From Crocosphaera sp. (GTDB lineage: Bacteria; Cyanobacteriota; Cyanobacteriia; Cyanobacteriales; Microcystaceae), in assembly GCA_030065735.1 (NCBI GenBank), contig JASJDD010000025.1, positions 1 through 32,181 on the forward strand: DNA of 32,181 nucleotides, given 5' to 3'. Positions 2,424 through 27,315 of the stretch are shown one piece after another. The position numbers were made by a program, and so were the translations under genes. How positions within the stretch are numbered: position 1 is the first letter of the stretch; the number at the start of each line of letters is the position of its first letter. The notes beneath the pieces were generated by a model. The model did no database searches. It worked only from the letters and a program-made list of their open reading frames with translations, and was not told the origin of the DNA.

Positions 2424-2536
2424 AGACAAGGCAGGAAGTTCCTTGTTTACCCCTTGCCTAATCAGGCCGAAAAATGAGGATTATCGTTGGTTAAAATGCT
2501 GAAAAGTATTTGCGGGTTCGATACCCGCTCCCGCTG
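2424..2536 (+). ncRNA. Y RNA-like ncRNA, copy 1 (Ro60 partner)
   Basis: A 46-nt core (2441-2486) closely matches the core of the second Y RNA at 2664-2708. It contains a Ro-site-like helix: CTTG (2453-2456), CCT, loop AATC, AGG, bulged C2467, then CGAA. A second short helix (TTTA/TGAG) and the strand ATTATCG follow. The TATCG strand next to the Ro helix also resembles animal Y RNAs. Downstream are a small hairpin (AATGC 2495-2499 / GTATT 2506-2510) and a perfect T arm, GCGGG-TTCGATA-CCCGC (2512-2528), with the T-loop bases needed for tRNA-type modification. The following TCCCGCT has no complementary 5' strand, and no D arm is visible, so the tRNA mimicry looks partial. A possible -10 (TACAAT, 2412-2417) suggests a start near 2424. 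Both ends are approximate. Confidence 0.6.
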
Positions 2537-2631: not shown

Positions 2632-2749
2632 GGCGAAGTAGCTCAATGGATAGAGCGTTACGTCCTTGTTCATCCCTTGCCCTTTGGGCCGAAGAATGAG
2701 GGTTATCGACTACTACTCGAAAGGTTGCGGGTTCGAGTCCCGCCTTCGC
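2632..2749 (+). ncRNA. YrlA-type Y RNA (tRNA mimic), exon 1; split by group II intron
   Basis: The outer parts fold as a tRNA: acceptor strand GGCGAAG (2632-2638), TA, D arm GCTC-AATGGATA-GAGC, and T arm GCGGG-TTCGAGT-CCCGC (2727-2743). The 3' acceptor strand CTTCGC (2744-2749) is completed by C5261 plus discriminator A5262 after the intron. Where a tRNA has its anticodon arm, this RNA carries a 45-nt Y RNA core (2664-2708). That core has CTTG 2676-2679 / CGAAG 2690-2694, a CCC/GGG stem and bulged C2689, then a TTCAT/ATGAG helix and GGGTTATCG. YrlA RNAs tether Ro60 to effectors such as PNPase and mimic tRNA. Position upstream of rsr supports the call. Removing 47 nt would leave a 73-nt tRNA-Arg-like body with an implausible ACT anticodon, so a decayed tRNA-Arg is the less likely alternative. 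Confidence 0.8.
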
Positions 2750-3384
2750 GTGCGACCTGTTTCTCAATGAAGCCCGAAACCTAGATATAATCAAGGTTAC
2801 AGCGAATTGAGAATTTAGATTAAAGTTCATCCGAACCATGAAATCTAAATAACTTTCTTATTTGTAGGTGACAGTCACCTTACTCAGAATCAATGAGATG
2901 TATATCTCAAAGGGTAACGATATATCCCTCATATTAAGAATAGTAACCTTAATATGAAGCAGGGATAAATGGGAGTAACTTCTAAACACAAAGAAGAATC
3001 CTCTCTAATCAACTGAATATGATTAAGAAATGAACCTTTGAATTAAAACCTCTTTAGGGATAGGTAGCGAAAAGTGTTTGATACGCTGCATTCAAATAGA
3101 TAAAAGACCAAGGTGCATCCAGCGACGGGATGATACACATCGATTCTCATAAAGGTCTAGGGGTAGAGAAGGAATCTAAGTTCAGATAGAACCTGATAAG
3201 AAGGAACAGGGAAACCCTATGTATCCTCTCACCATATTGGTCGATAAGGTGAGTAGCAACAAACTTGAGCGCAAGGTACATAGGAGTAGGAAAGAGTAAA
3301 AAGCTAATGCTTATTTGTAATAAATAAGATATGCTGACGTACTCTGACGTTAATTAGATGAAAAACTAACGATTAGTGGTAAAA

Positions 3385-5178
3385 ATGGAAAAAACGAGTT
3401 TAGAGACTACGGTATCATGGAACACAATCAACTGGGCTAAAATTCAGAGGAAAGTGTTTAAGCTACAAAAGAAGATTTTTCAAGCAGTACGCTCAGGTAA
3501 CAAAGCAAAAGCTCATAAGCTCCAAAAGTTACTATCAAAATCTTACTACGCTAAACTATTAGCGGTAAGAAAGGTAACTCAGGATAATCAAGGTAAGAAA
3601 ACAGCAGGAGTTGATGGAAAGATAATAATCTACCAGAAACAACGGTTAGAACTTGCCAATAATCTGAGTATAAAAGGATACAAAGCTAAACCACTTAGAA
3701 GGGTATGGATTCCCAAACCTGGAAGAGATGAAAAACGCCCATTAGGTATTCCTACCATCCAAGATAGAGCTATGCAAGCGTTAATCAAACTTGCACTTGA
3801 ACCTTACTGGGAAGCACAATTCGAGCCTAACAGCTTCGGATTCAGACCAGGAAGATCAGCGCATGACGCTATAGAATCAATCTTCAATTACACAAGTAAA
3901 AAGGAGAAATATGTTCTAGATGCTGATATAGCTAAGTGTTTTGATAAGATTGACCATCAATATCTATTGAATAAACTGGAATGTCCTCACTTCAGAATCA
4001 TAATCAAACAATGGTTAAAAGCTGGAGTATTGGATAATGGAGTTTTCAACGAAACTGATACTGGCACTCCACAAGGAGGAGTTATATCACCTTTACTTGC
4101 CAACATTGCATTACATGGAATGGAAACCTATCTCAAAGAATGGTTATGGGAAAAGATAGAATATCGAATTCCAAGAACAAGAAAAGGAAAAGATGGAAAC
4201 ACTGTAAAAGCTGGTTTCCACGCAAAGAAACATACAATTGAAGGAATCGGTATCATTAGATATGCAGATGACTTTGTTGTAATCCATGACAACTTGGATG
4301 TAATCATCAAAGCCAAGGAAGCAATCAGTAATTGGTTATCTCCAATTGGTCTAGAAATCAAACCATCCAAAACCAGAATATGTCACACTCTCAATGACAT
4401 AGAAATAGATGGAGAAAAACAAAAAGCTGGCTTCAATTTCTTAGGATTTAACGTTAAACAGTATCCTATTGGAAAACATCATTCCAGTAAGGATACCTGG
4501 GGAAGATTAATAAACCTCAAATTAATTATCTCACCCAGTAAAGAAAAAATCAATGAACACAAAGAGAAACTAAAACAGCTTTTGAAAGCTATGACTAATT
4601 CTCCACAAGTGGGATTGATCAGCAACTTGAATCCAATAATAAGAGGATGGGCTAACTATTATGCCACTGCTTGTAGTGCAAAAACCTATCAAGATTTAGA
4701 TAACTACCTCTGGGAAATCTTAAAAAGATGGGTATATAGAAGGCACAAAAAGAAATACAAAAAAGCGTTTAGAAAGTATTTCAGGAAAGGATCAGTAGGA
4801 AGATGGACATTCCAAACCAATAACGGATTGGAATTAAGATACCACAAACAAACTACGATTAAAAGACATACCAAAATAAAAGGTGAAGCAACCCCCTACG
4901 ACGGTAACTGGATTTATTGGAGTAAAAGAAGAGGGAACTACTTAGAAACACCAACAAGAGTTGCAAAACTCTTAAAGAAACAAAAAGGTAAGTGTAATCT
5001 CTGTGAGCAATACTTTACACCTGATGACCTTGTAGAAATCGATCATATTATCCCCAAATCAAAAGGTGGAAAGGATATATATAAAAATCTACAAGCTCTG
5101 CATCGCCACTGTCATGATGTTAAAAGCAGAAATGACGGTTCCTATGATGTACTAACTGTACCAGTAACAACTGGCTAG
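3385..5178 (+). CDS. ltrA: group II intron-encoded reverse transcriptase/maturase with HNH endonuclease
   Basis: About 597 residues. The reverse transcriptase fingers and palm include the motif RPLGIPTIQDRAMQALI, then SFGFRPGRSAHDAI, the GTPQGGVISPLLANI block and the catalytic YADD near residue 293. The maturase/X domain follows (LNPIIRGWANYY, WKxxRRHKKK-like basic region). The C-terminal HNH domain has zinc ligands CNLC and a CH pair around EIDHIIPKSKGGKDIYKNLQ, from about residue 530. The protein assists splicing of its own intron and reverse-transcribes it during retrohoming, while HNH cuts the second target strand. All catalytic motifs are intact, so it may still be active. ATG 3385 is taken as start; a GTG at 3376 is an alternative. 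The stop is 7 nt before domain V. ltrA is used as the generic family symbol. Confidence 0.95.
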   Translation: MEKTSLETTVSWNTINWAKIQRKVFKLQKKIFQAVRSGNKAKAHKLQKLLSKSYYAKLLAVRKVTQDNQGKKTAGVDGKIIIYQKQRLELANNLSIKGYKAKPLRRVWIPKPGRDEKRPLGIPTIQDRAMQALIKLALEPYWEAQFEPNSFGFRPGRSAHDAIESIFNYTSKKEKYVLDADIAKCFDKIDHQYLLNKLECPHFRIIIKQWLKAGVLDNGVFNETDTGTPQGGVISPLLANIALHGMETYLKEWLWEKIEYRIPRTRKGKDGNTVKAGFHAKKHTIEGIGIIRYADDFVVIHDNLDVIIKAKEAISNWLSPIGLEIKPSKTRICHTLNDIEIDGEKQKAGFNFLGFNVKQYPIGKHHSSKDTWGRLINLKLIISPSKEKINEHKEKLKQLLKAMTNSPQVGLISNLNPIIRGWANYYATACSAKTYQDLDNYLWEILKRWVYRRHKKKYKKAFRKYFRKGSVGRWTFQTNNGLELRYHKQTTIKRHTKIKGEATPYDGNWIYWSKRRGNYLETPTRVAKLLKKQKGKCNLCEQYFTPDDLVEIDHIIPKSKGGKDIYKNLQALHRHCHDVKSRNDGSYDVLTVPVTTG

Positions 5179-5185
5179 TTAATGG

Positions 5186-5219
5186 GAGCCGTGTGAGGTG
5201 AAAGTCTCACGCACGGTTC
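5186..5219 (+). other. group II intron domain V
   Basis: A 34-nt hairpin, GAGCCGTGTGAGG... to ...CGCACGGTTC, with the catalytic AGC triad at 5187-5189 and a GAAA tetraloop. It is the most conserved ribozyme element and fixes the intron's 3' end about 41 nt downstream. Confidence 0.93.
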
Positions 5220-5266
5220 TGAAGAGAGTTGTGTCAGGCGACTGGCACTTCGACTCTAACCATGTC

Positions 5267-5293
5267 TTTTTTTGCCTAAACAGGCCGAGGAGA
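5267..5293 (+). promoter_or_regulatory. Ro-binding-site-like hairpin overlapping the rsr Shine-Dalgarno sequence
   Basis: The rsr leader reads TTTG-CCT-AAAC-AGG-C-CGAGG (5271-5290). The architecture is that of the Ro site in both Y RNAs: CTTG, 3-bp stem, loop, stem, bulged C, CGAA/G. From G5274 to A5288 it matches copy 1 (2456-2470) at 14 of 15 bases. The 3' strand contains the Shine-Dalgarno GAGGAG (5287-5292), which can pair with the T run at 5267-5273. Binding of Ro60 here would be expected to hide the ribosome binding site. The resemblance and pairing are read from the sequence; feedback control is inference. Confidence 0.6.
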
Positions 5294-5299
5294 TGACCG

Positions 5300-6907
5300 A
5301 TGAATTATCAATTTTTTGCCCGTAAACAGAAAGGAACTCCCCAAACTCAACCCATTCGGGGACGAGAAGGAGAAATGATCCAAGGGCGATCCGGTGGTTG
5401 GATGTTTGATGCAGGGTTGTGGAAACTATTACGACGTTGTCTCCTCATTGGAACGGCACAAAGTACCTATTATGCCGAAAAACGTGAACTAACGGACGAT
5501 TTTATTGACGTTTTAAAGCAGGGTGTAGCAACCGATCCCAGTCGGGTTGCCTCGGAAATACTTTACGCCAGCGATGGCCGGGCGATCAATAATAGTGCGC
5601 CATTGTTAGGGTTAGTCTTACTTTCTATGGGTAAGACTCCTGAAGTAAAACAAGCTTTTCGGGAGATTTTCCCTAAAGTTGTCCGTACTGGTAGCCATTT
5701 CTATGAATGGTTAAGTTATACCAAGTCTTTGCGGGGGTTTGGCAAGATCATCCAAGAAGTGGGGACGCAATGGTTATCACGGGAAGATGTGAAAGGGTTA
5801 GCCTATCAACTGTTAAAGTACCAACAACGGTATGGTTTTTCTAACCGAGATGCGTTGCGTTTGTTTCATGTCAAACCCCCCACACAAGAGCATCAACAGC
5901 TATTTAACTGGGTGGTGAAGGGATGGGATGATTATTTGCCCGATGAAATACCGTCTGAAGCGTTAACGCAGATATGGTGGTACGAATGGTTAAAACATCA
6001 CCCCGATCAAACCCATAAAGCGATCGCTAAAGGTCGTTTAACCCACGAAATGGCTGCTCCTGTGGGAAAAATGGACAAAAAAGCCTGGCAACTGCTGTTT
6101 AATGAGATGCCTATCGGTGCCATGTTACGTAACTTAGGATCGTTGACAGATTTGGGGGTATTACGGGCTGATGAAAGCAAAAATCTGGATCGCTTGGAAA
6201 AGGTTCTTAATGATGTTAACCGTCTTAGAAAGGGGCGTATTCATCCCATCGATGTCCTCAAAGCCCTGAAAACCTACCAATCTGGGGGAAAAGTGGGGCG
6301 TAGTAAGAAAACCTGGAAACCAGTTCCTCGTATTGTAGAAATATTAGACAAAGCCGTGGAACTCTCCTTTGATATCGCCCAACCTACCAGAAAGGTGTTT
6401 CTTCACGCGGTGGATATTTCGGGATCGATGTCTTATGGTGTGGTAGACTCGGTTGGGTTAAGTTGTTGTGAAATTGCCACAGCGATGGCGTTGGTGACGG
6501 CTAAAGCAGAGAAAAACTACATGATTCGGGGATTTTCTACAAAATTTATCGATTTGGGAATCTCTCGTCAGGATAGTTTTCAGTCTGCGTTGAAAAAAGC
6601 TAGTAACCAAAACTTCGGGGGAACCGATGCCAGTGTTGCTTATAATTGGGCCATCAAAAACAAATTTAAGGCCGATGTTATCTGTTTTTGGACTGATAGC
6701 GAAAGTTGGGCAGGGTCTAAGCATCCTTCTCAAGCTTTAGCAGAATATCGTCAAAAAGTCAACCCCAAAGTTAAGGCGGTTTATGTTACTTTAGCCCCTT
6801 ATCGGATCACTTTAGTTGATCCCAAAGACCCTTTATCCTGGGATTTAGGGGGGTTTGATCCAGGGACTCCCCGTTTAATCCAAATGTTAGCAACAGACCA
6901 ACTTTGA
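5300..6907 (+). CDS. rsr: Ro60 homologue (TROVE/vWA RNA-binding protein)
   Basis: Ring-shaped RNA-binding protein that holds Y RNAs and misfolded or single-stranded RNA ends. In Deinococcus it is joined to PNPase by a Y RNA for structured RNA decay. The 535 residues fit the family: the HEAT-like TROVE ring covers about residues 15-355 (LTDDFIDVLKQGV, AINNSAPLLGLVLLSMG, YQLLKYQQRYGFSNRDALRL), and a von Willebrand A domain follows with the MIDAS motif DISGSM (372-377), GGTDAS and WTDSES. The start has Shine-Dalgarno GAGGAG 7 nt upstream, lying in a Y-RNA-like hairpin. The two Y RNA genes sit just upstream. Without the intron, the second would end only 37 nt before this ATG. No clear terminator follows; dispersed repeats do. 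Confidence 0.95.
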   Translation: MNYQFFARKQKGTPQTQPIRGREGEMIQGRSGGWMFDAGLWKLLRRCLLIGTAQSTYYAEKRELTDDFIDVLKQGVATDPSRVASEILYASDGRAINNSAPLLGLVLLSMGKTPEVKQAFREIFPKVVRTGSHFYEWLSYTKSLRGFGKIIQEVGTQWLSREDVKGLAYQLLKYQQRYGFSNRDALRLFHVKPPTQEHQQLFNWVVKGWDDYLPDEIPSEALTQIWWYEWLKHHPDQTHKAIAKGRLTHEMAAPVGKMDKKAWQLLFNEMPIGAMLRNLGSLTDLGVLRADESKNLDRLEKVLNDVNRLRKGRIHPIDVLKALKTYQSGGKVGRSKKTWKPVPRIVEILDKAVELSFDIAQPTRKVFLHAVDISGSMSYGVVDSVGLSCCEIATAMALVTAKAEKNYMIRGFSTKFIDLGISRQDSFQSALKKASNQNFGGTDASVAYNWAIKNKFKADVICFWTDSESWAGSKHPSQALAEYRQKVNPKVKAVYVTLAPYRITLVDPKDPLSWDLGGFDPGTPRLIQMLATDQL

Positions 6908-22305: not shown

Positions 22306-25300
22306 TTAACTATGGAATTTTTGACGCAAACTACCTTGATTTTTTTGAGATTTTTCGTAGTGTTGTAACCATTCATGACCTTTGTCTAATAACTCTTCAG
22401 GAGTTAATACTTTTAATTTAATGTTACTGAGATCCCAAATTTTGATAGTTTTGTCATTACTAGCAGAAGCAATGAATTGACCATTAGGACTAAACATGGC
22501 ACTGTTAACCCAATCGCTATGACCTTCTAACGTCCTCAGTAAAGTTCCATCTATACTCCAGATTTTGAGAGTTTTATCGGCACTAGCTGAAATTAAGAAC
22601 TGACCATCAGGACTAAATCCTACATCATAGACCTTAGAGTTATGTTTTGCTAGGGTATTTAAACATTTCCCATTGCTCAGATTCCAGAGTTTGATGGTAT
22701 TATCATTACTTGCAGAGGCCAACATTTTGCTATCAGGATTAAAAGCAACGCCATTAATCCAGTCTTGATGACCTTCTGGATGATCATTTTGCTCATAACT
22801 TCCAATGGTTCGGATTAATTTGCCATTTAAGTCCCAATGTTTAATTGTATTATCTGCGCTAGCAGAAGCAAGGGTTTGACCATCAGGACTAAACGCTACC
22901 CCCCATACTTTATCTGTATGTTGGTTATTCATCTGTTCGCCACAAGTAACGACTAATTTTCCCGTATCACCATTCCACAGTTTAACACTACGATCACCAC
23001 TACCAGAGGCTATATAATTGCCATTAGGACTGAAACGAACAGTATGAACAGTACCTGTGTGTTCTTCAAGGATTTGAGGAGACTCTTGATTAAGATTCCA
23101 CAACTTTATCCTATTATCTCCACCACCTGAAACCAGCTTTTGACCATCAGGACTAAAACTAACTTCCCAAACCCAATTTGGTTGGTTCTTTTGATCGGTA
23201 TCAAGAATACACTTGGTTTCTTTCCAAATGTTGTCAGTTTCACGACTCCATAAACGAATAGTGCCATCCCAACCCCCAGAAGCAAGGGTGTTACCATCAC
23301 GACTGAAACAAATACTATGAATCTTCCCTCCATGTCCTTTGAGGTTTTGGGGCAAAATAAAGTCTAGTTTCCTCAGTTTAATGGTATTGTCATCACTTGC
23401 AGACGCAAGAATTTTGCCATTGGGACTAAATTCCACATATCTTACCCAGTCTCGGTGTCCTCTAAAGGTTTTCAGCAAGTCCCCTTCAAGACTCCAAAGT
23501 TTGACCGTATTATCATTGCCTCCTGATGCTAATACCTGATCATCTTCTCTGAAGGATACACTATTCACTTGTTCTTTATGATTGAGATTCAGGTATGGTT
23601 TAACTTTATTCTCCTTGATCTCCCAAAGTTGGATAGTTCCATCTTCACTTGCTGAAGCTAAATATTCTCCTGAATGGCTAAATCTGACGCTTTTAATTGG
23701 CCTTTGTTGTTCTGCTAGAGTTTCTTTACACTTCTTTGTATTAATGTCCCAAAGTTTAATGGTATTGTCTTTCTCTCCTGATCCTGAAGCTAAGGTTTGA
23801 TTATCAGGACTGAAATCGATGGTGTAAACTTTATCGTCATGGCCTTTAAGGTTTGCAAAATGTTTAATAGTTAAATCTTGATACTTTTCACTCCAGTTTA
23901 GCTGCCAAAGCTTGATCAGGCGATCGCCTCCTGCTGATGCCAGCATTTTACCGTCAGAACTGAAACAAACATCCCAAACCCAATCATCATGACTAAGGGT
24001 ATCCTTTTTCCATTCCTCACAAGTGAATTCTTGTTTCGTAGAATTCCAAGAAATAAGCCAAACTTTAATGGTTTGATCCGCACTGGCTGAGGCTAACAGC
24101 TTACCATCTGGACTAATTTTAACGCTATTTACAGCATCCTGATGTCCTTTAACATTTTTTACGAACTCGTCATTTTCCACATCCCAGATTTCAATGGTTT
24201 TATCCCAACTTGCAGAAGCCAGAAATCTTCCATCAGGGGTAAAACTACCCTTACGACTAAAATTTACGCTATAAACATCACTCTGATGTTCCTCAAAGTG
24301 GTTATATTCTTCTAAACCATAGATAATATCTTTGATGGTTTTTTCTGTTTCTTGTTGGACTTCTAAGGGTAAATTTTTAAGGGTTTTTAACTTTTCGCTT
24401 GACTCAAGACTTGCTTGTAAAGCTTTGAGTTGATCATGTTCTGCAAAAGATTTTTGAGCCGTTAGGTTAAGTTGCTTAATCTCTTTAATAGCAAGTTCTT
24501 GTAAAACATCGCTTCTTTTTCTATCTAAATTAGACGCTAATTGATGGTATTTTTGACGAAATCTTTTCTGAATAATTTGGGTTAAATGATCAGGAGCTAA
24601 TTGATAAGTAAAACACCTATGATCACTGAAAAATGATGGCTTTTGAACCAATCCCGATTCTGTTGAAATAGCCAAAACTACATCTAGTTGTTGTTCAGTT
24701 GATTCTAATTCTGATAATTCTAATTTATCTTTTAACTCGTCATAGGTTTGTTTAGGACGAATATTATTGGAATCAGTTAGACAATAAAGAACGACTTCAG
24801 CAATCACTTGATTTTCTATTCCACAGTCTTTAGTGATTTCTTCCAAATATTGATCAAGTAATATTTTTTTCGGTTTTTTTTCGTTAACCCCTTGTGTTAG
24901 TTTTTCATAGTCTTGTAAAGTTGTAATTTTATTATTTTCTAACTGCGTTCCTACCATTTGTAGTTCAATGGGGATAACTTTTCCTTCTGGAGTCGCCAAA
25001 TCATTAACCAGTCTGTCAAGAAGTGACTCCTCTAAGAGATAAGTATTTTGCGTTAATTCCAGAATATCTGCCTTAGCTTCATCTAACTCCAAATAACCGA
25101 TATAGTAAAGATTATTTTTGTCCAAAATATTGTTGTTAATGATGTCGAAATTAGCTAAACGACTCAAATTTAGTAAATAATAGAGGTAATCTTCTCTCAC
25201 AGACAAAATAATTTTGACAAAAGGAATGGTAAGAGATTCTTGAATAAAGTTAGCAAATTCCTGACTATAATTAGCAAGTTTTGGACGATTAATGGGGTTT

Positions 25301-27315
25301 TGTAAACTAAAGCATAGTTCTTCTAAATTATCAAAAATTAAAACCGTAAGAATATTATCATTATTATTTTTACGTAGTTGCTCAAGAATTTTCTTGATTT
25401 TATTAATTGATGAGTCACTTGCCACAACTTGAAAATCATCAATTTCTTTTTTAAGATAGTTTCCTATGTCATCAAACCAATTAGGATACTGTGAGATTAA
25501 AATAGGCAAAACTGGCCGAGGATAAATGTTTTTTATTTGTTTTAAAACAGGAATTAATTTCGCTCGAAAGAGGGAACTTTTACCGACTCCCGATCCTCCA
25601 TAAACTACAATCAGTTTATGTTGGGTACTAGTAATACAAGTAATTAACTGGTTCATTTTGTTTGATCTGTCACTTTGCCCAATTACACTCGTCTCAACAG
25701 TTTCTGGTTTAAGGGGAAGTAAAAAAGGATTATTTATAATATGCTTTGTTGGTAAAGGAATTAGACCAATAAAAGCACGAAAACCAAATTGTTGTTCAAT
25801 TTTTCTTTGTTTTTGTTTAACTGAAAAAGCAGTCTTATGTTCTCCTTTTTGATAGTAAATTTTCTGTAATTCTTCCAAAATACTGATATAAAGTTCTGGA
25901 TCATAGTCAGGTTTTGTTTCTTTTTTTGCTTTTTCTAAGTGTTGGATAGCTTCTGAACTCTCTTGTAATTGATATTCTGCTTTAGCTAAAGGTAATAAAT
26001 ACCAACCCTGATGATAATGTTGTGTCCATTCTAACCAACCTTGAGGAAAATCATCTGGAGGATTTTGTAAAATTTCTGTTACACTATTATAAGCCTCTTC
26101 AGCTAATGATTTAGCTTGCTTCCAGTTCTTATTTTGATAAAACGCAACTTCAGCTAAAAAACCATTAATGCGTGCTAGTCTCAAATCATTATGATACTTT
26201 TTATGAAGTTGTTTTGCTCGTTGACCTATTGTTTTTAATTGCTCCCAATCATGAACTCTTTTCAGTGCTTCTGCTTCAGCATTGATGAATCTCGCTTCTA
26301 ACGCTTGATCACCGGTTTCTCTAAAGAGTTTGACACATTCTTGCCAATAATTTTTTACTTTTATGAAAGCTTTATCTCGCTCAATTCGATAAGACATTCC
26401 ATATCCCCACCACCATAATCCTAAACAGTAAAGAACACAAGCTTGATATTTAAAATTATCAGTTTTTCTGTATAATTCTAAACTTTCTTCGTACTGTTTT
26501 CGACAAAATTTATTGACTGATATGTCTTCATCACAATACCGTAAAGACATTATATTACTACCTGATAAGTTATTAAGACTATAACCTAGTAAAAACTCTA
26601 GATTAGCTTTCAACTCATCATTTAAGGTAACTCCACACTTTTCTAAGTCTTGTTTAGCGAAGTTTAATTCAGAAAATGTTAGCCAATCATTATTTTGATT
26701 AGACAACTCATTATTTTGATTAGACAACATTGTTTCTTGAAGTATTTTGACCCCAAATATTCCTGCTCCAAATTTTATAACCATGCGGAATATTTGTTCC
26801 GCATGGGAATTAATTAAATGAGTAACTTCATCAGTTGATATGTCAATTTCGATAGGAACTGACACTGGACTAGCAAAATCTGGGGATAATCTTACCAGTT
26901 TTGATAACATATCATCTGTTAACCACAAAACCAGAGGACATGAAAATTCATGAGATATTTTTTCTCGGTCTTGTTTAGTGGATCTCAGTACCTGATCAAC
27001 ATCACTAACCGACTCCATACCAAACACCATTAAAGCTGATGGTTGGTCATCTTTCAATTCTTCTTTTATCCCTTGATAAAGGGTTTTCGTCTCTTTATCC
27101 AAAACAATTGGGTGAATAGCCAAAGAAGAATCAATAGTCTTTAATTGCTGTAGGATAGTTGTCCATAAACTCAGATAATTGAACTTGACAAGAATTGTGG
27201 AATATTCTTGAGCTTGAACAGCTAATTTAATAGCTCTAATTAATTTATCTAAACCATCAATACTAGGATAATTACTCTTTTCTTGAGGCAGATTAGTAAT
27301 TAAATTGCTATTCAT
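22306..27315 (-). CDS. giant STAND-type ATPase with TPR-like region and 14 WD40 repeats
   Basis: Predicted cytosolic sensor/scaffold of 1669 residues. Residues about 1-190 resemble a degenerate P-loop-like domain seen in large cyanobacterial ATPases (SALMVFGMESV, CPLVLWLTDDMLSKLVRLSPDF). Residues about 230-520 are helical and TPR-like. A STAND/AAA ATPase follows: Walker A GGSGVGKSS near 572-580 and Walker B LIFDNLEEL near 655, with a winged-helix-like region after it. From about 1008 to 1640 I count 14 WD40 repeats (such as GHSDWVNSAMFSPNGQFIASASNDKT), enough for two seven-bladed propellers. Shine-Dalgarno GGGAGA is 7 nt before ATG 27315. It lies 63 bp after the ORC/KAP-like ATPase and is surely co-transcribed with it. 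STAND proteins with repeat sensors often act in signalling or defence; the ligand here is unknown. Confidence 0.9.
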   Translation of the reverse strand: MNSNLITNLPQEKSNYPSIDGLDKLIRAIKLAVQAQEYSTILVKFNYLSLWTTILQQLKTIDSSLAIHPIVLDKETKTLYQGIKEELKDDQPSALMVFGMESVSDVDQVLRSTKQDREKISHEFSCPLVLWLTDDMLSKLVRLSPDFASPVSVPIEIDISTDEVTHLINSHAEQIFRMVIKFGAGIFGVKILQETMLSNQNNELSNQNNDWLTFSELNFAKQDLEKCGVTLNDELKANLEFLLGYSLNNLSGSNIMSLRYCDEDISVNKFCRKQYEESLELYRKTDNFKYQACVLYCLGLWWWGYGMSYRIERDKAFIKVKNYWQECVKLFRETGDQALEARFINAEAEALKRVHDWEQLKTIGQRAKQLHKKYHNDLRLARINGFLAEVAFYQNKNWKQAKSLAEEAYNSVTEILQNPPDDFPQGWLEWTQHYHQGWYLLPLAKAEYQLQESSEAIQHLEKAKKETKPDYDPELYISILEELQKIYYQKGEHKTAFSVKQKQRKIEQQFGFRAFIGLIPLPTKHIINNPFLLPLKPETVETSVIGQSDRSNKMNQLITCITSTQHKLIVVYGGSGVGKSSLFRAKLIPVLKQIKNIYPRPVLPILISQYPNWFDDIGNYLKKEIDDFQVVASDSSINKIKKILEQLRKNNNDNILTVLIFDNLEELCFSLQNPINRPKLANYSQEFANFIQESLTIPFVKIILSVREDYLYYLLNLSRLANFDIINNNILDKNNLYYIGYLELDEAKADILELTQNTYLLEESLLDRLVNDLATPEGKVIPIELQMVGTQLENNKITTLQDYEKLTQGVNEKKPKKILLDQYLEEITKDCGIENQVIAEVVLYCLTDSNNIRPKQTYDELKDKLELSELESTEQQLDVVLAISTESGLVQKPSFFSDHRCFTYQLAPDHLTQIIQKRFRQKYHQLASNLDRKRSDVLQELAIKEIKQLNLTAQKSFAEHDQLKALQASLESSEKLKTLKNLPLEVQQETEKTIKDIIYGLEEYNHFEEHQSDVYSVNFSRKGSFTPDGRFLASASWDKTIEIWDVENDEFVKNVKGHQDAVNSVKISPDGKLLASASADQTIKVWLISWNSTKQEFTCEEWKKDTLSHDDWVWDVCFSSDGKMLASAGGDRLIKLWQLNWSEKYQDLTIKHFANLKGHDDKVYTIDFSPDNQTLASGSGEKDNTIKLWDINTKKCKETLAEQQRPIKSVRFSHSGEYLASASEDGTIQLWEIKENKVKPYLNLNHKEQVNSVSFREDDQVLASGGNDNTVKLWSLEGDLLKTFRGHRDWVRYVEFSPNGKILASASDDNTIKLRKLDFILPQNLKGHGGKIHSICFSRDGNTLASGGWDGTIRLWSRETDNIWKETKCILDTDQKNQPNWVWEVSFSPDGQKLVSGGGDNRIKLWNLNQESPQILEEHTGTVHTVRFSPNGNYIASGSGDRSVKLWNGDTGKLVVTCGEQMNNQHTDKVWGVAFSPDGQTLASASADNTIKHWDLNGKLIRTIGSYEQNDHPEGHQDWINGVAFNPDSKMLASASNDNTIKLWNLSNGKCLNTLAKHNSKVYDVGFSPDGQFLISASADKTLKIWSIDGTLLRTLEGHSDWVNSAMFSPNGQFIASASNDKTIKIWDLSNIKLKVLTPEELLDKGHEWLQHYEKSQKNQGSLRQKFHS
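26670..26735. repeat. 21-bp in-frame tandem duplication in the STAND gene
   Basis: The unit CATTATTTTGATTAGACAAC occurs twice in tandem (about 26687-26728), giving the protein duplication NELSNQNN/DWLTF-type (LSNQNNELSNQNND). It keeps frame and lies in the TPR-like linker region. Confidence 0.6.

What the first reader, a model, noticed from the sequence alone, without database searches (positions are those of the whole stretch)
5267..5299. The rsr leader mimics the Y RNA Ro-binding hairpin and buries its Shine-Dalgarno
Bases 5274-5288 match Y RNA copy 1 (2456-2470) at 14 of 15 positions and keep the bulged C. The 3' strand of the hairpin is also the Shine-Dalgarno GAGGAG, and a T run at 5267-5273 can pair with it. 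A protein that binds Y RNAs through this element could bind its own mRNA and block translation, with free Y RNA relieving the block. I know of no described autoregulation of this type for Ro60.
Basis: partly seen in the sequence, partly recalled or inferred. Interest (0 to 1): 0.85.

Follow-up and report, generated by a model that had tools for sequence, protein, structure and literature searches.

The report
Y RNA mimic in Ro60 leader
The short RNA stretch just before the start of a cyanobacterial Ro60 gene carries a copy of the docking site that Ro60 uses on its partner Y RNAs, is kept across cyanobacteria and recurs in some phages, and so looks like a switch by which Ro60 could turn down its own production.

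Summary
Window 5274-5288 matches Y RNA copy 1 at 14 of 15 positions; no other + strand place reaches 12. In an alignment of 106 leaders not selected by motif, most core columns are about as conserved as the start codon. A model built from leaders alone finds, at E <= 0.004 in 572 kb, 72 leaders and about 69 Y RNAs among 142 matches. After the stem, leaders use three of eight allowed dinucleotides; the same three make up 326 of 329 Y RNA hits. Two deep phage lineages carry the element before their own Ro genes; 17 of 19 phage clusters do not.

Two corrections. Burial of the Shine-Dalgarno by the U run is not conserved; occlusion by bound Ro60 fits better. The window's leader is the 3' exon of a group II intron that splits Y RNA 2.

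Ro60 binding and repression are inferred, not shown. Most likely a target-mimic translational operator: a new variant of a known kind, not met in the papers I could search.

The parts
5266..5299 (+). rsr leader element (stretch modelled as R1)
   Evidence: Alignment A1 of 70 selected leaders, this one included; R1 finds it as the best match in the held 4.49-Mb genome (79.7% complete), E 1.3e-6, next best 0.0153
5274..5288 (+). Y RNA-like Ro-binding core GCCTAAACAGGCCGA
   Evidence: 14 of 15 to Y RNA copy 1; core in 99 of 109 leaders, the window's own among them
5267..5273 (+). U run; the two Us next to the core are near-invariant, the rest is lineage-specific
5287..5292 (+). Shine-Dalgarno GAGGAG, sharing two bases with the core
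5300..6907 (+). rsr, Ro60 orthologue (TROVE and Ro60 vWA domains)
   Evidence: Pfam PF25045 and PF05731; PDB 2nvo, 1yvp, 9nen
2440..2490 (+). Ro-binding region of Y RNA copy 1 (core 2456-2470)
   Evidence: fold; R1 finds 2454-2477 with 14.7 bits, not significant at genome scale (E 1.53)
2632..2749 (+). Y RNA copy 2, tRNA-like with the Y domain in place of the anticodon arm; its last acceptor-stem base lies beyond the intron at 5261
   Evidence: fold of the joined RNA: 7-bp acceptor stem, D arm, Y domain, T arm; relatives without the intron
2750..5260 (+). group II intron between the last two bases of the Y RNA 2 acceptor stem
   Evidence: RF00029 at 5184-5260; GTGCG start; absent in L002, L003, L004, L086
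3376..5178 (+). intron-encoded reverse transcriptase / maturase with HNH domain
   Evidence: Pfam RVT_1, RVT_N, GIIM, HNH

Best explanation
The rsr leader carries a minimal copy of the Ro60-binding site of Y RNAs, placed so that its 3' strand runs into the Shine-Dalgarno. Free Ro60 (Rsr) binds it through the surface that normally holds Y RNA and blocks ribosome entry, so that Ro60 is made only while Y RNA is in excess to hold it. Shown: the element, its conservation, its place, its likeness to Y RNAs, its recurrence in phages. Inferred: that Ro60 binds it, that binding represses translation, and that Y RNA relieves the repression.
For: Core in 99 of 109 distinct cyanobacterial upstreams (a first, slightly different pattern gave 98 of 109). 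Two of the 99 are doubtful: L124 fits only in a forced register and L094 lies at -52. TTG lies at -28 in 67 of 102 hits and at -35 to -22 in 101 of 102. In an alignment of 106 leaders not selected by motif, core columns are T 1.00, T 0.97, G 0.94, C 0.97, C 0.98, then G 0.97, G 0.99, C 0.86, C 0.61, G 0.93, against mostly 0.4-0.8 outside and 0.96-1.00 for the start codon (of three rows left out, L126 and L120 lack the core and L039 has it). A further stem pair next to the loop can be formed in 100 of 102 leader hits and 329 of 347 Y RNA hits, against 556 of 1609 background hits of the same scan; in leaders it changes at least 19 times on a quick rsr tree, with 27 two-sided changes among 70 leaders that had been chosen to have the pair (cells with two-sided change 30 against 11.0 in shuffles, 0 of 500; number of pairs with such a change not above shuffles, 321 of 500). 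R1, built from leaders alone: 142 matches at E <= 0.004 in 79 of the 80 loci (572 kb): 72 leaders, 62 Y RNAs by rule, 8 others, of which 6 read as Y RNAs and one as a degenerate one by eye. It also finds a Y RNA of Picosynechococcus PCC 7002, a species not in the model (L130, E 1.6e-5 for 57 kb). Of 13 loci with no Y-like tail in the last 240 nt, 10 keep the core, the window (because of its intron) among them. Phages: 7 of 16 named non-cyanobacterial loci scanned have a leader hairpin of this type, all 7 being the Streptomyces phages, with 0.08 expected per leader; the general motif is in 26 of 47 phage leaders against 121 of 3206 background windows.
Against: No binding or expression data. 10 of 109 cyanobacterial leaders lack the core; several of these show divergent hairpins by eye, but L097 and L120 have none next to the start and L126 (37% identical protein) lacks it. 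17 of 19 phage Ro clusters lack the motif, and the Bosea leader shows none. GGACG in leaders does not follow the Y RNAs of the same genome: 4 of 7 such leaders have only CC-type Y RNAs in the scan. R1 does not separate window Y copy 1 from chance at genome scale (E 1.53). In 59 relatives R1 also gives weak matches in 10 genomes without an rsr match, best E 2.4e-4. Part of the invariance in A1 is by selection on the pattern, and leaders are related by descent.
Confidence: 0.65

Rival explanations
1. Ro60 does bind the leader, but for another purpose: to bring PNPase to its own mRNA and shorten its life, to load newly made Ro60 near Y RNA, or to activate rather than repress.
For: All sequence evidence for binding applies equally. 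In Deinococcus, Y RNA tethers Rsr to PNPase (PMC4726728, PMC8058203, passages).
Against: The closeness to the start codon, constant in most cyanobacterial leaders, is what occlusion needs and what decay does not. The leader lacks the tRNA-like part of a Y RNA.
Confidence: 0.15
2. A plain RNA-only switch, such as a fourU-like thermometer: the U run masks the Shine-Dalgarno and no protein is involved.
For: The U run pairs with the Shine-Dalgarno in the minimum-energy folds of the window and of Nostoc L048, the latter better than 195 of 200 shuffles.
Against: The outer pairs are broken in 21, 10 and 11 of 70 leaders. 18 leaders without a U run have no better partner than shuffled upstreams (116 of 400 as good) or swapped ones (224 of 400); in 50 U-run leaders shuffled upstreams pair as well (200 of 200). 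The Kenrey phage leader leaves its Shine-Dalgarno unpaired. Conservation falls on the sequence-specific core instead.
Confidence: 0.1
3. A by-product of the neighbouring Y RNAs: the remnant of a Y RNA, or a signal for ending or trimming the upstream Y RNA transcript.
For: In many loci printed the last Y RNA ends directly before the leader.
Against: The T run precedes the hairpin, so it is no intrinsic terminator of the usual kind. The spacing is to the start codon. 10 of 13 loci without a Y-like tail in the last 240 nt keep the core. In phage NootNoot the upstream neighbour is a protein gene ending 17 nt before the Ro start. In L097 the element precedes a small ORF that lies before rsr.
Confidence: 0.07

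Closest known systems
Ro60-binding site of Y RNAs
   Same: UUG-CC / GG-N-CG(A) core; mostly the same dinucleotides after the stem
   Different: Lies in an mRNA leader over the Shine-Dalgarno, without the tRNA-like domain
Autoregulatory leaders of ribosomal proteins and of thrS (recalled, no call)
   Same: A leader copy of the protein's normal RNA target next to the ribosome binding site
   Different: The copied target is a regulatory noncoding RNA that itself imitates tRNA; binding untested
fourU RNA thermometers (recalled, no call)
   Same: A U run can pair with the Shine-Dalgarno in many cyanobacterial leaders
   Different: That pairing is not conserved; the sequence-specific core is

Membership tests
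Y RNA Ro60-binding site | helix with an extra (bulged) base, GG-N-CG(A) opposite UUG-CC | tested here: met
   bulged C named as the main Ro60 binding site in PMC4030889 and GGUCCGA in PMC11277228 (passages)
Y RNA Ro60-binding site | bound by Ro60 | not testable with these tools
   needs gel shift or footprinting
Bacterial Y RNA with tRNA-like domain (YrlA type) | tRNA-like domain with D and T arms | tested here: not met
   the leader is a hairpin only; Y copy 2 in the same window has the domain
Target-mimic translational operator | lies over the ribosome binding site of the gene of the binding protein | tested here: met
Target-mimic translational operator | resembles the protein's cognate RNA beyond chance | tested here: met
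Target-mimic translational operator | protein represses its own translation through it | not testable with these tools
   no expression data
fourU thermometer | conserved U run pairing with the Shine-Dalgarno | tested here: not met

The most novel reading that the evidence does not exclude
Cyanobacterial and phage Ro60 genes carry a Y RNA decoy site as a translational operator, so that Y RNAs act as anti-repressors which set Ro60 synthesis to match their own amount: a noncoding RNA controlling its protein partner through a copy of itself in the mRNA. The arrangement was kept across most rsr-bearing cyanobacteria sampled and recurs in at least two distant phage lineages.
Probability: 0.5. Interest if true: 0.85.

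Novelty: new variant of a known kind. Interest (0 to 1): 0.78.

Why it matters
Ro60 and Y RNAs are known from bacteria to humans, where Ro60 is a major autoantigen, yet I met no account of how bacteria balance the two in the papers I could search. This gives a concrete, testable regulator, a natural set of about 70 distinct operator sequences that may show what Ro60 recognises, and a mark for finding Y-type sites in other mRNAs. It also suggests that some phages regulate their own Ro60 in the same way.

Tried and rejected
Burial of the Shine-Dalgarno by pairing was tested and dropped as a conserved feature. Co-variation of the leader's GGACG variant with the Y RNAs of the same genome: no support, too few independent pairs. 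A wider regulon in the own genome: R1 matches beyond the leader start at E 0.0153; the ORFs around five of them were printed, their distance to start codons was not computed, and none was pursued. My first Y RNA and background classification was contaminated by Y RNAs and reversed loci and was replaced. The Y scan asks for UUG and so leaves out the second Y form (UUA); its list of loci without a near Y RNA overstates their number, and one search used a broader rule. Ro60 in IMG/VR with the window protein as query: no close relative. Other bacterial phyla were hardly sampled: only one Bosea and one Rhizobium plasmid (the Rhizobium start is uncertain) were read; hits in Nonomuraea, Pseudomonas, Methylosinus and others were not fetched, and Deinococcus and enterobacteria were not reached. 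Of the deep relatives in the phylum, L126 was scored and lacks the element; L127, L128 and L129 were printed but not scored. Rfam has no family matching the leader. Paper searches listed no paper whose title or shown abstract deals with Ro60 or Rsr leader autoregulation (not all papers that matched were listed, e.g. 25 of 67). Key papers on bacterial Y RNAs, Chen 2014 and the 2018 and 2020 reviews, are not held and remain unread.

Full report
What is there. The window comes from a cyanobacterium whose closest rsr relatives are Crocosphaera. rsr (5300-6907) encodes a Ro60 orthologue (Pfam Ro60 vWA and TROVE; solved relatives 2nvo, 1yvp, 9nen). Upstream lie two Y RNAs (cores at 2456-2470 and about 2677-2692). 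The second is a full tRNA mimic once a 2511-base group II intron (2750-5260) is removed: the joined RNA folds into a 7-bp acceptor stem, a D arm, a Y domain in place of the anticodon arm, and a T arm. The intron sits between the last two bases of the acceptor stem; in L002, L003, L004 and L086 the Y RNA runs straight into the rsr leader.

Observation. 14 of 15 positions match; nothing else on the + strand of the window reaches 12 of 15, and the best on the - strand is 11 of 15. The Shine-Dalgarno GAGGAG (5287-5292) shares two bases with the core.

Conservation. rsr loci came from 59 relatives (17 with a match), from GTDB contigs (116 relatives found, best 80 kept), from 386 genomes of the phylum (41 with a match, loci for the best 30 rows), and from six further regions. 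Of 130 sources (129 loci and the window), 127 gave a match to the rsr protein; three (L015, L016, L128) were dropped for lack of a usable start and three (L017, L127, L129) gave no match; after merging identical upstreams 109 remained. A core of TTG, two pyrimidines, a loop, two pairing purines, any base, C or T, then G was found in the last 60 nt of 99 of 109, with TTG at -28 in 67 of 102 hits. Two of the 99 are doubtful: L124, whose fit is forced, and L094, at -52. An alignment of 106 leaders, not selected by motif (left out: L126 and L120, which lack the core, and L039, which has it), gives the core frequencies of 0.93-1.00 except for the bulge and its neighbour (0.86 and 0.61), against 0.96-1.00 for the start codon and mostly 0.4-0.8 elsewhere.

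Pairing. A further stem pair beside the loop can be formed in 100 of 102 leader hits, 329 of 347 Y RNA hits and 556 of 1609 background hits of the same scan. In 70 leaders chosen to have it, it is C-G 37, U-A 25, U-G 6, A-U 1, G-U 1. Against shuffles, cells changed on both sides are in excess (30 against 11.0, 0 of 500), the number of pairs with such a change is not (2 against 1.7, 321 of 500); the two central C-G pairs hardly vary and say nothing. On a quick rsr tree of 106 proteins, branch support ignored, this pair changed at least 19 times and the two bases after the stem at least 23 times among CC, CT, AC and loss.

Likeness to Y RNAs. Leaders: CC 54, CT 39, AC 7. Y RNA hits: CC 245, AC 65, CT 16, TC 2, AT 1. 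Background hits use all eight combinations. The second Y form, with UUA, is outside this count. R1, built from leaders only, gave 142 matches at E <= 0.004 in 79 of the 80 loci (572 kb): 72 leaders, 62 Y RNAs by rule and 8 others, of which 6 read as Y RNAs by eye, one (L052) as a degenerate one, and one (L097) as a leader in front of a small ORF; all lie on the rsr strand. Among the 300 rows shown up to E 10 the first minus-strand match comes at E 0.76. Many of these leaders trained the model; the Y RNAs did not. In the own genome R1 gives the leader E 1.3e-6, next best 0.0153, and Y copy 1 only E 1.53. In 59 relatives 24 genomes match at E <= 0.01; the nine best of 35 rows are rsr leaders, 13 of the 17 rsr genomes give their leader, and 10 genomes without an rsr match give weak rows, best E 2.4e-4.

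Independence from the neighbouring Y RNA. Of 108 loci with at least 240 nt upstream, 13 show no Y-like tail between -240 and -25, and 10 of these keep the core.

Phages. The Ro genes of seven Streptomyces phages (Kenrey, TunaTartare, Naboo, NootNoot, BoomerJR, Samisti12, Coruscant) have a GCC or UCC hairpin ending in GGGCCGA, GGGCCGG or GGGUCGA shortly before the start; the nine other loci of that scan (phages of Mycobacterium, Gordonia, Agrobacterium and Microbacterium, and a Bosea plasmid) have none in the last 45 nt. A stricter general motif, scored alike on both sets, was found in 26 of 47 phage leaders against 121 of 3206 background windows (1.8% of shuffles), and in 85 of 109 cyanobacterial leaders against 240 of 10092 windows (3.0% of shuffles); it misses some visible hairpins, Samisti12 (as L192) and Coruscant among them. 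Among 54 phage proteins in 19 clusters at 60% identity, 2 clusters carry it (23 of 27 and 5 of 5 members) and 17 do not; at least two leaders occur twice in the larger cluster (L133 and L167, L145 and L189). L190 and L191 were left out there for a short reading frame; L191's leader has the motif. L223 has a similar hairpin that the rule misses. FuzzBuster has a Y-like stretch in its leader.

Mechanism. In Deinococcus, Y RNA is reported to sequester Rsr and so inhibit its part in 23S rRNA maturation, and the bulged cytosine is named as the primary Ro60 site (PMC4030889, passages). A leader with the same site would compete for the same surface. In the usual spacing the core spans about -28 to -13, so bound Ro60 would sit against the Shine-Dalgarno (inference).

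Known or new. Leaders that copy the target of the encoded RNA-binding protein are a known kind (ribosomal proteins, thrS; recalled). One that copies a Y RNA was not met in eight paper searches (listings only, some capped), and Rfam has no matching family. The main bacterial Y RNA papers are not held, so novelty is provisional.

Noticed in passing
window 2632-2749, 2750-5260, 5261: A group II intron with its maturase interrupts the acceptor stem of a tRNA-like Y RNA, so splicing would be needed for the intact Y RNA and for a continuous transcript into rsr; absent in the four close loci compared (L002, L003, L004, L086).
   Followed up: partly
L097 (Lyngbya aestuarii), from -238 relative to the rsr start: The leader element stands before a 59-codon ORF (ATG at -207) that precedes rsr, as if the element had stayed with the first cistron of an operon.
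   Followed up: partly
L062, L121, L122, L124, L125, L130: Some Y RNAs use a second form, UUA(Y)CC / GG(G)UCG, with A-U in place of G-C; in several of these lineages the leader has diverged too, with UCCC / GGGACGG.
   Followed up: partly
cyanobacterial rsr loci (50 of 109): Y RNA-like hairpins also lie downstream of rsr.
   Followed up: no
L011, L016, L017, L018: In some genomes of the window's genus rsr carries an internal stop or is found only as a fragment, suggesting decay of the gene, though contig ends were not excluded.
   Followed up: no
window 22306-27315 (-): A 1669-residue protein with many WD40 repeats.
   Followed up: no
L146 (Microbacterium phage FuzzBuster), about 60 nt before the Ro gene: A Y RNA-like hairpin with its tail lies within the Ro gene leader.
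   Followed up: no
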